From positions 1-64,000 of the forward strand of contig JAPLDF010000005.1 in assembly GCA_026391835.1 (NCBI GenBank): a stretch of 64,000 nt of DNA. Reading direction: 5' to 3'. The notes below the pieces were generated by a model. It was given only the letters and a program-made list of their open reading frames with translations. It did no database searches and was not told the origin of the DNA. The stretch's first letter is position 1. Each line of letters begins with the position of its first letter. Shown in pieces: positions 8,132 to 13,140 of this stretch. This stretch comes from Bacteroidota bacterium (GTDB lineage: Bacteria > Bacteroidota > Bacteroidia > Bacteroidales > FEN-979). A program made the translations under genes and the position numbers.

Positions 8132-8359
8132 TCACGTTGATTTAACAAAAACCATCTGATGATCAAGAAAGGGCTTGAGACTTTGCGACCGGGTGTGTTC
8201 CCTTACATGATGCACTTCATAATGATCCTGGGTTGCTCTTTTAATAAGGTATTGCATACCGATTTTCTTCTTTCCGCCAACATGAAAATCGTCCATGGTA
8301 GCAAGGCGAAAACCATCCGGCAATTTGTCATGATACTCCCATCCGTATTGATCAATCAT
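8132..8359 (-). CDS. Small phage protein of unknown function
   Basis: The 75-residue product begins MIDQYGWEYHDKLPDGFR and is basic in its second half, with several His and Lys residues. There is no signal peptide or known motif. It is the first gene after the repeat-rich spacer at 8360-8696 and is followed after 13 bases by the next phage gene, so it probably opens the late transcript. Its sequence is continuous and its codon use matches its neighbours, which supports it being real. Confidence 0.5.
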   Translation of the reverse strand: MIDQYGWEYHDKLPDGFRLATMDDFHVGGKKKIGMQYLIKRATQDHYEVHHVREHTRSQSLKPFLDHQMVFVKST

Positions 8360-8396: not shown

Positions 8397-8663
8397 GTGT
8401 CAACGTGACAACGTGCCAACAAAAGTTTATTTTTTAGGTTTAACACACTGATATTCAAACATGATATGTCTTGTTGTCACATTTTAGAGGTCTGTTGCAC
8501 CGATTTAGTGTGACAACAAAAAACAGAATGGCTTACCCCGCATGTGCCAACATGTGACAACAGAAAAAAAGTGTGACAACAGAATTCTGAAAACATAATA
8601 AACTGATATATAAGATTATAATTATTCATTTTATTGTCTGTTGGCACGTTGGCACGTTGTCAC
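8397..8663. repeat. Iteron cluster, candidate prophage replication origin
   Basis: Eleven exact matches to GTGNCAAC lie in 267 bases. Three are tandem without spacer at 8397-8420. Three are tandem in the opposite orientation at 8640-8663. One inverted copy is at 8473, and direct copies start at 8510, 8544, 8554 and 8573. Between 8581 and 8637 the sequence is about four-fifths A/T, like a DNA-unwinding element. The cluster lies just downstream of the primase-helicase gene. Iterons plus an AT-rich stretch next to a replication gene are the usual signs of an initiator-bound origin. A regulatory operator array is the alternative. Confidence 0.65.
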
Positions 8664-8696: not shown

Positions 8697-11600
8697 TTAA
8701 AAAGGGAACTCATTTTGCTCTCCAGGCTGATCTGACAATTTTTCCGGATCATTCAAATCCAGGGATGTCTGTTCGGGTGTTTTGAAGCGCTCAAGATCGA
8801 TCCCCATTGCCTCGATGATTTTATAGTCAAGAACAATGCAACTGGTAACACGTTCGGCTTTCTGAATTACTTTCCGGTTGATGCCGGTTGCAGGATCAGT
8901 CTCCCATGACTCCACCTGGTAAATAAACCGGTGACCTTTAACGGCCCCGATGTAAGCAGGGTGATCCTTCAGGTACATCCGAAGGGAGTTTAGCTTCAAG
9001 CTTTCCGAACTGTGCATTTTCTGATAGATCTGAACAACATCGTTGATGATCAAGAACAACAATTTCTTTTCCTCTCCATCCCAGTGTTTTTCTTCTGTTT
9101 CAGTCCGGGAAATGCGCAGCGTCACCCGTTTTTCTGTGGAAATATCAAATTCTCTCCCCGAAATGATCTGTCCCTGGGCATACAGCATGGAGATCGTATC
9201 AAAGAATACGGATAATTTATTGCTGGTGCTGAGTTCTTCGCTCTGACGGATGATCTGCCTTTTGGCATCCTCATAGAACTCGTTAAACGAAAATGGAAGC
9301 GGCAGTTCTTTCACGTGGTCTTCCCACATTTTAGCCATTGCAATGAAAAGGCTTACCGTATTGATCATCCGGGTTTGGTAGGTTCCGCCTTCCTTTCGGA
9401 TGTCTTCCTTTACCTTTTTCTGGTACTGGCGCATATATCCTGCAAAATATTGCTGCACCAGGGGCCGCCGTTTGATGATCTCCATGGCGATATTTGAAAG
9501 TCCGTCGGCCTCGCGTTTCTTAAGATCGGTATACAGACTCACTTCTTCCTCCGTCCAGTTATCCTTTTTCGGCACGTGTTTCTGAACTACACGGTTGCCC
9601 AGGGCGCCATCGTCTCGTTCGGGGCCGTCCTGACCAAGCAGAAGCGGACAACCGTATATTTTTGAAACATCGATATCCTTACTGGTTGCATCTTTTCGCT
9701 TCTGCTTGCCTTCGTTGTCATAGACGGCGGCCTTCAGTCCCTGGAACTTAACATCCGATATCTGGTAATCGTTGTACTCTTCAAAGATCACCGGAATGTC
9801 CCGGAATCTCTCAAGTGATGTAAAGAAAGCTGCATCGGTGCCCGAGTTCAGGTTGAATAAAGGAGCGCCGTACATGAACGGGGCCCGAATGCTTTCGGCA
9901 ATTCTTGACTTGCCGCTTTCGGTTGGTCCGATGAAAAAAAGCGAAGTAAAAAAACGCTCGATTGGAAAGATGATCGACCTGTTGACACTAAGCAGGGTAA
10001 ACAGCAATGCCCACATACCATTGTTATTATAGGTGTACACCTTATACATCAGCTCTGCCCACTCTTGCCACGATGTGTGTTGATCATGCTTGTAAACCAG
10101 GAACCGGTCATACTCGTACTTGTCGTTGTCGGTGCGCTGATCCTTATAAATTTTCGAAAATGCAGGCAAATAATAGGTTTCCCGTTTGAATTTTACCAGG
10201 CCGAGTTCATCCACCGCATGGAATACGCCATCGGAAATGATCCCGTTGCTAAAAGCAAAAAAGCCTTCCGGCTGGGATCCGAATATTGAAAGCTCATGGC
10301 ACTTGGGAAACTGAAGAGAGATACTTTCCAATATTTTTTCATGGTGGAACTGCTTACCATTGGTAAATATATATGCGCCGGTGTTCCACAGAAATTTTTT
10401 GAACGGGGCCAGCTCGATCATGTCGCTGCTCTTGAACTCGACATATTCCTCTTTGCCCAGTTCACTGTGGAAGAGTTTGATAAACCGTTTGTTTTTTATT
10501 GGGTCAGGATCATGCACCTGGAACAAGGGTTCCATGTAAAAGTTACCGACCTTGATGAGCGTATTGTCCAGTGTCCGGAAAACATAAAAAATCTTATTCC
10601 CTGAGTTGTTCTGAGCAGGAAAGAACCCGTATCGCTGAAAGAAAGACTGATCGACGTAATCCGGCAAGTGAGCGATATCGAAAACATATTGCTCATCATT
10701 GATCACAACATGTTCCTGTTGCTGGACAGCAAGGTTCTTTCGCTTCTCGACAAAGGGGCGCAGAACCTTTGAGAACGCACCCTGCGTTAAACCGAACTTT
10801 TTAGCGATCTCGTTGGTCTTGATGTGGATGATGGTATTGTCGAGCTTGGATAGGAACTCGGCAGTCATCTCCACGAACTTTTTGGACCGTTTGGTATCCG
10901 GTTGCCGGATCAGCCTGTAAGTTAGTCCATGGACATAGAAATCCAAAAAGTCGATGTACACTGGTTCCTTTTCATCTTCCGTGGTTTCATCCACGCTTCC
11001 ATCTTCCCGGACTTCGACCCGAAGCCCCTGTTCAGTAAGCATCCTGCCGGCTTCGGTCAGCGGCAGTTCAGTATCATTATCATCAACGACCTTTGAAAGG
11101 CCTTCGATTTTGACATTCCTGGTCAGCTTTGATAATCTGAAAAGATCATCTTTTTTTAACGGACCTGCAGGCAGACTGATGGTGTTTTCTTTTCCTTCTG
11201 CATGATAGGAAACCACCCGGACAGGATCAGACAGCAGAATCGCAAAGCCGATTTCAGTGATCATATCAACGGAAGCATCAAGGCCAAAAAATCCTTTCTC
11301 GGTCTTATCGACCTTTGGTAACTGTTTTTTAACATTCCGTTGCATATCCTCAGGGTTGACTTCAAGTTTTTTTGCAATATCAGTGATAAGATACCCCCGG
11401 GTCTCTTCGTCGCTGATCAGAGATATCTGGGAAACAAGTTCTTTGACATGCCTGGCTTTCTGAAGCGGGTCCTTTTCGACCTGCTCCTTCACCATCTCGA
11501 TGCGGAAGGAAACAATGTCTTTGCGGTTATCCTCGATATAATGTTTAAGCTTTTCTGCTCCATACTTGATAACGTATGAATCGGGATCTTCTCCATCCGG

Positions 11601-12590
11601 AAGAACGACAAGATAAACATCAAGACCCATTTGAAGGGGTAGCCTGATGTTTGAAACACTTGCTTTTATGCCGGCTGGATCCCCGTCATAGACGATCGTA
11701 AGGCAACTGGTAAGCGATAAGATCATCTTTACCTGATCCTCGCTCAGGGCGGTGCCCGAACCGGCCACGACATTTTTGATCCCGGCCAGGTGCCAACTGA
11801 TAAGATCGGTTTGACCTTCCACAAGCAGGCATTCATTCTCTTTCATGATCTCCTTCTTGGACTGGTAAAGCCCGTAAAGGAACCTGCTCTTCTTGAAAAC
11901 TTCGGTTTCAGCACTGTTCAGGTACTTGGGTTTATCTTTCTCGGTAGTTATCAGCCGTCCGGTAAAACCGATTACCCTTCCTGTCCGGTCGAAAAACGGG
12001 AATATGATCCGCCGGCTAAAAGCGTCATACAAATGCCCCTGATCATTTTTTTTCAATAATCCGGCTGCAAGCAAAATTTCACTGGAGAAACCTGCCTGCT
12101 GTGCTTTATGGAAAAGATCGTTGCCGGTCTCGGCGTAACCGATCAAAAAGAGGTCAATGGCCTGCTCCAACTTTCTCTGTTGCAAATAAGAGAGAGCCGG
12201 TTTATTTTTCTGAAGGTTGGCTGAGAAAAGCTGCTGTGCCCATTTCAATGCGGCGAAAATGCCATCTCTTCTTTTCTCTGCTTCGGAGTATTGCTGATCA
12301 GAACCATTTAATTTAACCGGGATATTATAGTGACCTGCAATGTAGGTGAGGGCTTCCGTGTAGCTCATTGCTTCATGCTCACGAAGGAATTCGATGGCAT
12401 CACCGGATTTACCGCAGCCAAAGCATTTGAAGGAACCCCGTGCGGGGTTGACTATGAAACTGGGAGTTTTTTCGTTGTGGAAAGGGCAACAGGCGGTATA
12501 GTTGATCCCCTTTTTCTTCAGGGTGATGAAATCACCCAGGATATCGTTTATCTGTACTGCATTTTTTATTTCTTCTGTATTCGCTATCAT
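8697..12590 (-). CDS. Phage DNA primase-helicase fusion
   Basis: The 1297-residue protein should prime and unwind DNA for phage replication. A CHC2 zinc finger is at the N-terminus (CPFH at 35-38, then CFGC at 56-59), followed by a TOPRIM primase core with VEGQTD near 257-262 and DGD at 302-304. After a long middle region a Walker A loop GPTESGKS lies near residue 888 and FEEYND about 50 residues later is the likely Walker B acidic site, so the C-terminal part is an ATPase/helicase-like domain. The DnaG-type half is about 430 residues; the whole is much longer than DnaG. It lies next to the iteron cluster, with small early-type genes upstream. Confidence 0.85.
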   Translation of the reverse strand: MIANTEEIKNAVQINDILGDFITLKKKGINYTACCPFHNEKTPSFIVNPARGSFKCFGCGKSGDAIEFLREHEAMSYTEALTYIAGHYNIPVKLNGSDQQYSEAEKRRDGIFAALKWAQQLFSANLQKNKPALSYLQQRKLEQAIDLFLIGYAETGNDLFHKAQQAGFSSEILLAAGLLKKNDQGHLYDAFSRRIIFPFFDRTGRVIGFTGRLITTEKDKPKYLNSAETEVFKKSRFLYGLYQSKKEIMKENECLLVEGQTDLISWHLAGIKNVVAGSGTALSEDQVKMILSLTSCLTIVYDGDPAGIKASVSNIRLPLQMGLDVYLVVLPDGEDPDSYVIKYGAEKLKHYIEDNRKDIVSFRIEMVKEQVEKDPLQKARHVKELVSQISLISDEETRGYLITDIAKKLEVNPEDMQRNVKKQLPKVDKTEKGFFGLDASVDMITEIGFAILLSDPVRVVSYHAEGKENTISLPAGPLKKDDLFRLSKLTRNVKIEGLSKVVDDNDTELPLTEAGRMLTEQGLRVEVREDGSVDETTEDEKEPVYIDFLDFYVHGLTYRLIRQPDTKRSKKFVEMTAEFLSKLDNTIIHIKTNEIAKKFGLTQGAFSKVLRPFVEKRKNLAVQQQEHVVINDEQYVFDIAHLPDYVDQSFFQRYGFFPAQNNSGNKIFYVFRTLDNTLIKVGNFYMEPLFQVHDPDPIKNKRFIKLFHSELGKEEYVEFKSSDMIELAPFKKFLWNTGAYIFTNGKQFHHEKILESISLQFPKCHELSIFGSQPEGFFAFSNGIISDGVFHAVDELGLVKFKRETYYLPAFSKIYKDQRTDNDKYEYDRFLVYKHDQHTSWQEWAELMYKVYTYNNNGMWALLFTLLSVNRSIIFPIERFFTSLFFIGPTESGKSRIAESIRAPFMYGAPLFNLNSGTDAAFFTSLERFRDIPVIFEEYNDYQISDVKFQGLKAAVYDNEGKQKRKDATSKDIDVSKIYGCPLLLGQDGPERDDGALGNRVVQKHVPKKDNWTEEEVSLYTDLKKREADGLSNIAMEIIKRRPLVQQYFAGYMRQYQKKVKEDIRKEGGTYQTRMINTVSLFIAMAKMWEDHVKELPLPFSFNEFYEDAKRQIIRQSEELSTSNKLSVFFDTISMLYAQGQIISGREFDISTEKRVTLRISRTETEEKHWDGEEKKLLFLIINDVVQIYQKMHSSESLKLNSLRMYLKDHPAYIGAVKGHRFIYQVESWETDPATGINRKVIQKAERVTSCIVLDYKIIEAMGIDLERFKTPEQTSLDLNDPEKLSDQPGEQNEFPF

Positions 12591-12640: not shown

Positions 12641-12889
12641 CTATACTGAATCATCCTGCTGGAGAGCTTCATCAATTGCGACAAGCAATTCTCCTATCCT
12701 AGAGAATTTGCTTGCTACAATATGAAGGTAGTCAACCGACTTCTCAATATACTTCAGATGTTGCAGAGAACACATTGTACTGGTATCTTCAGTGAACAAC
12801 CTTACGTCTTTTTGATTTTTAATTGCTTCTTTCAAGGCATCCCTGATAATAATCAAGTCTCCCTGGCTCATGGCAGAAAATGTCTTCAT
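12641..12889 (-). CDS. Small prophage protein of unknown function
   Basis: The ATG at 12889 overlaps the stop of the upstream gene as ATGA, which fixes the start and implies coupled translation. The 82-residue product (MKTFSAMSQGDL...) is helical and charged, with no signal peptide, Cys cluster or catalytic motif. It ends about 50 bases before the primase-helicase gene, so it is likely an early replication-region accessory or regulator. I do not recognise the family. Confidence 0.6.
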   Translation of the reverse strand: MKTFSAMSQGDLIIIRDALKEAIKNQKDVRLFTEDTSTMCSLQHLKYIEKSVDYLHIVASKFSRIGELLVAIDEALQQDDSV

Positions 12890-13140
12890 TGCATTGCCCT
12901 CCTTAATTGAAGGACCCTTTCTTCCAATTCTTCGGTTCCTTTTGAGAGTTCTTCGCATAAAGAAACCGCTTCTTTGATTATGGTCTCATTGTAATCCGGC
13001 TGATCCGGATCCAGGCAGCGATAAATGTACTGAGCCGAAAAAATAATTTTATTATTCTTTAATCTCCGTCGTATTCTTGGCACACTTCCTCTAGGTAGTT
13101 CCCCCCTGAGGATAGTCAATGCCTCATTGCTTATTTTCAT
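12886..13140 (-). CDS. Small prophage protein of unknown function
   Basis: The 84-residue product begins MKISNEALTILRGELPRGS and contains a basic stretch RIRRRLKNNK followed by a C-terminal coiled-coil-like helix (residues 65-84). The N-terminal half resembles a small winged or helix-turn-helix DNA-binding domain, but no family is recognised. It is coupled by an ATGA overlap to the next gene toward the primase, so it belongs to the early operon. A role in replication control would fit the location. Confidence 0.6.
   Translation of the reverse strand: MKISNEALTILRGELPRGSVPRIRRRLKNNKIIFSAQYIYRCLDPDQPDYNETIIKEAVSLCEELSKGTEELEERVLQLRRAMQ

What the first reader, a model, noticed from the sequence alone, without database searches (positions are those of the whole stretch)
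8397..8663. Iteron-type candidate origin beside the prophage primase-helicase
Eleven copies of GTGNCAAC lie in 267 bp, with a direct triplet at one end (8397-8420) and an inverted triplet at the other (8640-8663), plus an AT-rich stretch between (8581-8637). The next gene is the primase-helicase. The sequence shows the repeats; that they are initiator sites is inference from the usual layout of iteron origins.
Basis: partly seen in the sequence, partly recalled or inferred. Interest (0 to 1): 0.7.

Follow-up and report, generated by a model that had tools for sequence, protein, structure and literature searches.

The report
Prophage replication origin with swappable address word
The repeats are very probably the start site for copying a prophage, read by the tail end of the neighbouring primase-helicase; relatives keep the same layout near this gene but spell the repeated eight-letter word differently.

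Summary
In detail: 11 copies of GTGNCAAC at 8397-8663, 9 in the rest of the window. The array lies 33 bp 3' of the primase-helicase gene (8697-12590, minus strand).

Searching relatives for GTGNCAAC alone would mislead. Of 58 loci (window included) with the long primase-helicase ORF, 50 have an array of one 8-mer within 2.6 kb 3' of the gene (score 11 or more; 0 of 174 shuffles). The word differs between lineages (GTTGTCAC, TGTAGGGC, GTTGGAAC, TGCGGAAC, CGAAGTAA and others), while the layout is largely kept: opposed outer tandems, AT-rich spacers, an inner cluster at about 10/20/30-bp steps.

The C-terminal half is predicted to fold like the self-loading helicases SCCmec Cch and SaPIbov1 Rep. 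Word differences track residues 1211-1260 best (partial r 0.57), in a predicted helix-helix-beta-hairpin module. The small early proteins were found in few array-bearing relatives.

Best reading: a SaPI-like replicon, DnaG-type primase fused to a Cch-like helicase with its iteron origin downstream, in tailed phages. Function is inferred; nothing was assayed.

The parts
8397..8420 (+). outer triplet of GTGNCAAC, 8-bp steps (distal from the primase-helicase gene)
8421..8472 (.). AT-rich spacer, 76.9% AT
8473..8580 (.). inner cluster: copies at 8473 (-), 8510, 8544, 8554, 8573 (+); start-to-start steps 37, 34, 10, 19
   Evidence: steps
8581..8639 (.). AT-rich spacer next to the helicase gene, 83.1% AT; candidate unwinding region (inferred)
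8640..8663 (-). outer triplet, inverted relative to 8397-8420, 33 bp from the gene's stop codon
8697..12590 (-). primase-helicase gene, 1297 aa, proposed initiator
   Evidence: DnaG zinc ribbon, DNAG_N and Toprim by Pfam; C-half model and fold search
11301..12590 (-). DnaG-type primase part, about residues 1-430
8700..10808 (-). Cch/SaPIbov1-Rep-like helicase half, residues 595-1297 (modelled)
   Evidence: AlphaFold2 mean pLDDT 83.9; Foldseek top hits 5dgk and 8tch
9906..9929 (-). Walker A-like GPTESGKS, residues 888-895 (motif name recalled)
   Evidence: G, G and K invariant in A1
8826..9047 (-). C-terminal helix-helix-beta-hairpin module, residues 1182-1255; proposed reader of the octamer
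   Evidence: models; covariation peak; sequence
8132..8359 (-). next ORF (75 aa) on the far side of the array, conserved in near relatives; function unknown

Best explanation
8397-8663 is the replication origin of the prophage. The 1297-aa protein encoded next to it is its initiator: a DnaG-type primase fused to a self-loading helicase of the SCCmec Cch / SaPIbov1 Rep fold. Its C-terminal helix-helix-beta-hairpin module binds the octamers. Two oppositely oriented outer triplets and a phased inner cluster seat the helicase oligomers, an AT-rich spacer melts, and the fused primase lays the first primers. Shown by computation: repeats, layout, conserved place, predicted fold similarity of the helicase half, covariation. 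Inferred: binding, melting, loading and priming. In different phage lineages the word is replaced in concert at the sites together with the reading module.
For: Array score of 11 or more within 2.6 kb 3' of the gene in 50 of 58 long-ORF loci, 0 of 174 shuffles. Recurrent layout in proteins down to 21-35% identity to the window's C-half. Spacers of 30 bp or more are on average 21.9 points richer in AT than the gene, 79 of 80 positive, in 37 non-redundant loci. Fold: 5dgk (Cch) E 3.7e-14, 8tch (SaPIbov1 Rep) E 3.2e-12; 6 of 37 family members weakly hit DUF927 (best E 0.0025; the window protein itself has no hit), the domain named for Cch in PMC7581432 (passages). Word distance against protein-window distance in 37 non-redundant loci peaks at residues 1211-1260: rho 0.64, partial 0.57; 0 of 200 permutations reach it; 273 of 300 bootstraps peak at window midpoints 1200-1249. 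In the few close pairs the word goes with the primase, not the head module: L084 is 96% in the primase, 78% in a 316-aa head-module protein, same word; L194 and L006 are 81% in the primase, 97-98% in the 316-aa protein, different word; L005 is 86% and 97%, same word. The nine P. gingivalis phages examined repeat their own word as a tandem beside the integrase, word class matching in 9 of 9 (they are related to one another, so not nine independent cases).
Against: No binding or replication data. Cumulative GC skew shows no turn at the array in two whole P. gingivalis phages. The C-terminal module alone has no PDB fold match (best E 0.12). Covariation may keep some shared ancestry despite the partial correlation; secondary peaks exist at 891-940 (0.45) and 71-120 (0.38), and 27 of 300 bootstraps peak elsewhere. 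Eight of 58 score under 11: L039 and L207 have under 200 bp downstream, L008 has 740 bp, L013 has a candidate array further out, L012, L048, L016 and L043 score 7-10. Among whole-genome hits G478 and G395 show none within 2.6 kb. Controls are not empty: 3 of 46 upstream regions and 9 of 91 dnaG-sized loci reach 11.
Confidence: 0.8

Rival explanations
1. The array is an operator: a phage regulator binds the octamers to control transcription of the genes past the helicase (75-aa ORF and the head module).
For: It lies upstream of ORF 8132-8359 and between early and structural genes. Promoter-like matches overlap both outer triplets.
Against: Promoter-like matches are at chance level (3 found, shuffles mean 2.1; sigma-70 consensus only, other promoter types not covered). 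In P. gingivalis phages the array sits 1.1-3.4 kb past the primase among different genes. The word tracks the helicase C-terminus. An origin could also act as an operator.
Confidence: 0.08
2. The array is a packaging (pac/cos-like) site read by terminase.
For: It lies just before the head module.
Against: The word differs between phages whose 316-aa head-module protein is 97-98% identical and is the same in one with 78%. No terminase is on the window's stretch, so terminase itself was not compared.
Confidence: 0.04
3. The array is a partition (parS-like) or incompatibility site.
For: Repeat clusters are typical of such sites (recalled); one P. gingivalis phage gene is labelled ParB-like.
Against: No partition family was hit by the window genes tested, but the rest of the prophage is not on this contig.
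Confidence: 0.03
4. It is an origin, but the word is read by a host or other phage protein, not by the primase-helicase.
For: The C-terminal module has no known fold match; covariation is indirect.
Against: The covariation peak falls on one predicted module. Of seven neighbouring window genes compared, the two early ones are rarely found in relatives; early genes of the relatives themselves were not compared.
Confidence: 0.12

Closest known systems
SaPI/PICI replicon (SaPIbov1 Rep, pri-rep-ori)
   Same: Helicase initiator with C-terminal origin recognition and ori directly downstream made of short repeats (PMC7581432 passages); two sets of iterons around an AT-rich region, primase sometimes fused (PMC6092414 passages); fold match 8tch.
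   Different: Here the primase is DnaG-type (SaPIbov1 and SaPI5 primases are AEP); the origin has outer triplets plus an inner cluster with two AT-rich spacers; two complete relatives are tailed phages with capsid, portal, terminase and tail genes, not satellites. [quoted passage not shown]
SCCmec Cch helicase
   Same: Best fold match of the C-half (5dgk).
   Different: PMC7581432 says no origin had been identified before for SCC elements and proposes one for Cch2, not Cch (passages); no DnaG fusion is described in the passages seen.
Phage P4 alpha protein and ori
   Same: Toprim-type primase and origin-binding winged helix in one multifunctional protein that binds repeats, unwinds and primes (PMC4234260 passage). 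P4 octamer iterons and a second site crr are recalled.
   Different: P4 alpha is not among the 50 PDB rows shown and was not compared directly; a second word-matched site was seen only in P. gingivalis phages.
PLE RepA and ori
   Same: DNA-binding domain covaries with the origin, and replicon modules are exchanged (PMC8263062 passages).
   Different: RepA_N protein, three ~30-bp semi-palindromic iterons (same passages).
Lambdoid O protein and iterons (recalled)
   Same: Origin specificities differ between relatives.
   Different: Unrelated initiator; iterons lie inside the gene; not tested here.

Membership tests
SaPI/PICI-type replicon | initiator is a self-loading helicase of the Rep/Cch fold | tested here: met
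   5dgk E 3.7e-14 (TMq 0.49, TMt 0.64), 8tch E 3.2e-12 (TMq 0.50, TMt 0.69); a predicted model, 10-14% identity; self-loading itself not tested
SaPI/PICI-type replicon | origin directly 3' of the initiator gene | tested here: met
   window: 33 bp; array within 2.6 kb in 50 of 58 loci, though 1-3.4 kb away in the P. gingivalis phages, in part of the CTTACTTC group and in L019, L023, L054
SaPI/PICI-type replicon | iteron sets flanking an AT-rich region | tested here: met
   in the window three clusters and two AT-rich spacers rather than two sets around one
SaPI/PICI-type replicon | C-terminal domain of the initiator binds the iterons | tested here: inconclusive
   covariation peak and predicted module; no fold match for the module alone
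SaPI/PICI-type replicon | pri-rep-ori drives autonomous replication | not testable with these tools
   needs an experiment
PICI (phage satellite element) | satellite that lacks a full set of phage structural genes and depends on a helper (definition partly recalled) | tested here: not met
   window element has a head-maturation protease; the two complete relatives fetched whole have terminase, portal, capsid and tail genes; the window's own element is cut by the contig start
P4 alpha/ori | primase, helicase and origin binding in one polypeptide | tested here: inconclusive
   primase and helicase fold met; binding not shown
P4 alpha/ori | second cis site (crr, recalled) | tested here: not met
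   no second tandem with up to one mismatch in G000 or in the genome of L084, both draft assemblies; present in 9 of 9 P. gingivalis phages examined

The most novel reading that the evidence does not exclude
A widespread tailed-phage replicon in which the origin address is exchangeable: one initiator fold and one origin layout, but an octamer rewritten in concert across the array (in P. gingivalis phages also at a distal tandem beside the integrase, 31-38 kb away on the linear map), with the matching change in a ~60-residue C-terminal module. The set of natural word-module pairs would amount to a readable recognition code, and the switching would reflect escape from origin hijackers, origin-directed nucleases or replicon cross-talk.
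Probability: 0.35. Interest if true: 0.78.

Novelty: new variant of a known kind. Interest (0 to 1): 0.6.

Why it matters
It proposes an origin and an initiator for a large group of phages, among them P. gingivalis prophages, whose genome paper has no hit for origin of replication, iteron or primase in its main text (find only). [quoted passage not shown] Because word and reading module vary together over dozens of natural pairs, how origin specificity evolves becomes directly testable.

Tried and rejected
Small early proteins 12641-13140 as initiator: judged unlikely. GTGNCAAC as a family-wide marker: rejected; the word changes. GC-skew support for an origin: none. Hypothesis that prophages sharing a host must carry different words: the host has two with different words (C54 GTTGTCAC, C47 TGTAGGGC), but G609 has three with the same word TACTTTAA, so it is not a rule. 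Distal tandem as a general feature: in 12 CTTACTTC-group records and in L007 and L009 the matches fall within or beside the main array; L008 has none; the host genome of L086 has its main array plus 19 scattered 3-mismatch matches (reversed-pattern control 13), taken as chance. In 14 further records a loose TGTNG pattern at 9-bp steps matched 7; five lie at the main array, two (L019's and L052's records) elsewhere do not spell the record's own word (this pattern misses other steps and words). Fold search for the C-terminal module alone: nothing. PDB sequence searches: no hit at E<=10 for the single protein, best E 0.13 for the profile. Second viral-contig scan with the C-half: 4 loci, all from records already found.

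The words were oriented and typed by hand from earlier outputs; one search repeats the covariation test with automatic profiles and no hand orientation. Rows dropped: loci with array score under 11 or under 700 bp downstream (58 to 50) and near-duplicates at 90% identity or more (50 to 37). Relatives come from capped lists: best 80 of 142 confirmed, best 80 of 586 or more (mostly host dnaG), and 13 phage-collection records fetched of 266 matching. Upstream control, 3 of 46 at 11 or more: L194 (a TTTACCCG tandem repeat), L086 and L084 (not examined). dnaG-sized control, 9 of 91 at 11 or more: L014, L042, L046 and L047 are phage loci with a helicase ORF at the array; L111, L116, L118, L129 and L138 were not examined. 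In one search the script took a wrong ORF for L241, so the C38 prophage of G609 rests alone.

Full report
Observation. GTGNCAAC occurs 20 times in the window (shuffle mean 7.26, largest 13 of 100), and 11 of these lie in 267 bp at 8397-8663. The two outer triplets are exact 8-bp tandems facing opposite ways (25-nt arms, 92% complementary). Between them are an inner cluster and two AT-rich spacers (83% and 77% AT). The tandem dimer is found only here in the 5.35-Mb assembly. The gene next door, 8697-12590, is on the minus strand, so the array follows its stop codon by 33 bp.

The neighbour. The 1297-aa protein has a DnaG-type zinc ribbon, DNAG_N and Toprim in its N-terminal third; its residues 595-1297 have no Pfam hit at E<=1. 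An AlphaFold2 model of residues 595-1297, built on an alignment of 37 sequences with the window's included (mean pLDDT 83.9, pTM 0.67), matches SCCmec Cch (5dgk, E 3.7e-14) and SaPIbov1 Rep (8tch, E 3.2e-12) in alignments of about 645 columns (TM-score 0.49-0.50 by query length), and then, more weakly, RavA, MCM, D5 and SaPI5 Rep among others. PMC7581432 (passages) describes Cch as DUF927-containing and related to SaPIbov1 Rep, and SaPI Rep as using its C-terminal domain to recognise iterons directly downstream of its gene; 6 of 37 family members weakly hit DUF927, best E 0.0025.

Relatives. brought relatives from phage records, IMG/VR, GTDB genomes and the own genome; the lists are capped. 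Of the loci scanned only L005 and L084 share the GTGNCAAC array. Reading the same place in the others shows other words in a similar layout: TGTAGGGC in L006, L194 and L085; GTTGGAAC in L007, L009 and L086; TGCGGAAC in L010. A word-free scan scores arrays by copies with at most one mismatch plus exact copies. In 58 loci with an ORF of 900 aa or more (window included), 50 score 11 or more between 60 bp inside the gene end and 2.6 kb past it; 174 dinucleotide shuffles reach at most 10 (one of them). Controls: 3 of 46 upstream regions and 9 of 91 loci with dnaG-sized ORFs (590-760 aa) reach 11. Of the 8 misses, two have under 200 bp downstream and one 740 bp. The 58 include near-duplicates; 37 of the 50 are distinct at 90% identity.

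Layout. Typical: a tandem (two or three copies) at 8-9-bp steps, an AT-rich spacer, a few copies at 10, 19-21 or 29-31-bp steps, often inverted copies, another spacer, and an opposed tandem (step counts). Spacers of 30 bp or more exceed the gene's AT content in 79 of 80 cases, mean 21.9 points. The distance from the gene varies: about 40-130 bp in many, 0.5-3.4 kb in the P. gingivalis phages and several others.

Which protein reads the word. In 37 non-redundant loci, automatic word profiles were compared with protein distances in sliding 50-residue windows, controlling for whole-protein distance. The peak is residues 1211-1260 (partial 0.57, rho 0.64); 273 of 300 bootstraps peak at window midpoints 1200-1249, 27 elsewhere, and 0 of 200 label permutations reach the value. 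Residues about 440-570 were not testable for lack of aligned sequence. Both models put two helices (1182-1193, 1200-1208) and a long beta hairpin (1213-1231, 1238-1255) there. This looks winged-helix-like, but the module alone has no PDB match, so that name is not claimed. Between the GTTGTCAC group (window, L005, L084) and the TGTAGGGC group (L006, L194, L085; the first two nearly identical), 50 of 903 positions fixed in both groups differ: 4 of 373 in residues 1-600 and 46 of 530 in 601-1297.

Linkage. The window and L194, two prophages of one host genome, are 98% identical in a 316-aa head-module protein, yet 81% in the primase-helicase and different in word; L084 is 78% in the former, 96% in the latter, same word. 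In these few pairs the word goes with the primase-helicase. The small proteins 12641-13140 are found in few array-bearing relatives (tblastn at E<=1e-3).

A second, matching site in P. gingivalis phages. The nine phages examined (of 18 Porphyromonas records) all carry a tandem of their own word (eight triplets, one pair) 9-31 bp past the 3' end of the terminal integrase; seven have the GTTGGAC type and two the GTAGGAC type, matching the main array in nine of nine. The phages are related, so these are not nine independent events. None was found in the own genome or in the genome of L084, and in the IMG/VR records searched with their own word the matches were in or beside the main array. Word-matched change at two distant places is what a trans-acting reader would require.

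Wider pattern. Among 34 other IMG/VR loci with a shorter primase ORF and at least 1.5 kb downstream, 13 have an array of score 9 or more (11 of them 11 or more) starting 5-98 bp after a second ORF of 507 aa or more; 21 do not. Eight of these ORFs were scanned and all hit D5_N or DUF5906; L051's belongs to the present family. So a different helicase family shows the same arrangement in part of the sample.

Further check in whole genomes. A profile search of 395 genomes gave 8 with matches, the own genome among them. Of the other seven, arrays follow the gene in G609 (three prophages, one word, the third weaker), G190 and G715 (at about +2.2 kb), but not within 2.6 kb in G478 or G395; G522 has 223 bp downstream and G415 is a short fragment match.

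Literature. Searches listed nothing that, by title and abstract start, describes this origin or this DnaG-Cch-like fusion as a phage initiator; the held library lacks most subscription papers, so this is not proof of novelty. [quoted passage not shown] PMC8263062 (passages) is the closest precedent seen for covariation of an initiator's DNA-binding domain with its origin. PMC4234260 (passages) describes P4 alpha. PMC10367356 (find only) has no hit for origin of replication, iteron or primase in its main text.

Limits. No assay exists. GC skew does not support or locate an origin in two whole phages. Covariation is correlational. The prophage in the window is cut by the contig start.

Noticed in passing
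BK068107, 097, 100, 101, 103, 105, 108, 109, 110 (L212, L213, L244-L250), beside the terminal integrase: All nine P. gingivalis phages examined carry a distal tandem of their own origin word 3' of the integrase; in the two read (L212, L213) it follows a terminator-like hairpin by eye. Possible crr-like or integrase-coupled site.
   Followed up: partly
L030, L036, L041, L042, L046, L047, L050, L053, L056, L058, L059, L063: Octamer arrays start 5-98 bp after a second long ORF downstream of the primase; eight of these ORFs were scanned and hit D5_N or DUF5906.
   Followed up: partly
G000:C47:13482-17405 and G000:C30:4-1359: The host genome carries a second prophage of the same type with another word, and a third fragment of the gene cut by a contig end. 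Near-identical head modules may be why contigs break there (inference).
   Followed up: partly
G609:C38, C40, C51: Three prophages of this family in one genome share one word; the array in C38 looks weaker (8 copies, 2 exact).
   Followed up: partly
L194 13151-13310: TTTACCCG tandem repeat about 1.7 kb upstream of the C47 primase gene; a simple tandem repeat that does not spell the origin word.
   Followed up: yes
L086 around 5353: Dense AGCAGCAT repeat upstream of the primase (18 copies with at most one mismatch); not examined.
   Followed up: no
G000:C32:12106-12196: 21-bp tandem repeat containing TGTAGGGC on another contig of the host.
   Followed up: no
L057 around 10622: Array of 19 TGCCCGTG-like copies not next to a long ORF.
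   Followed up: no
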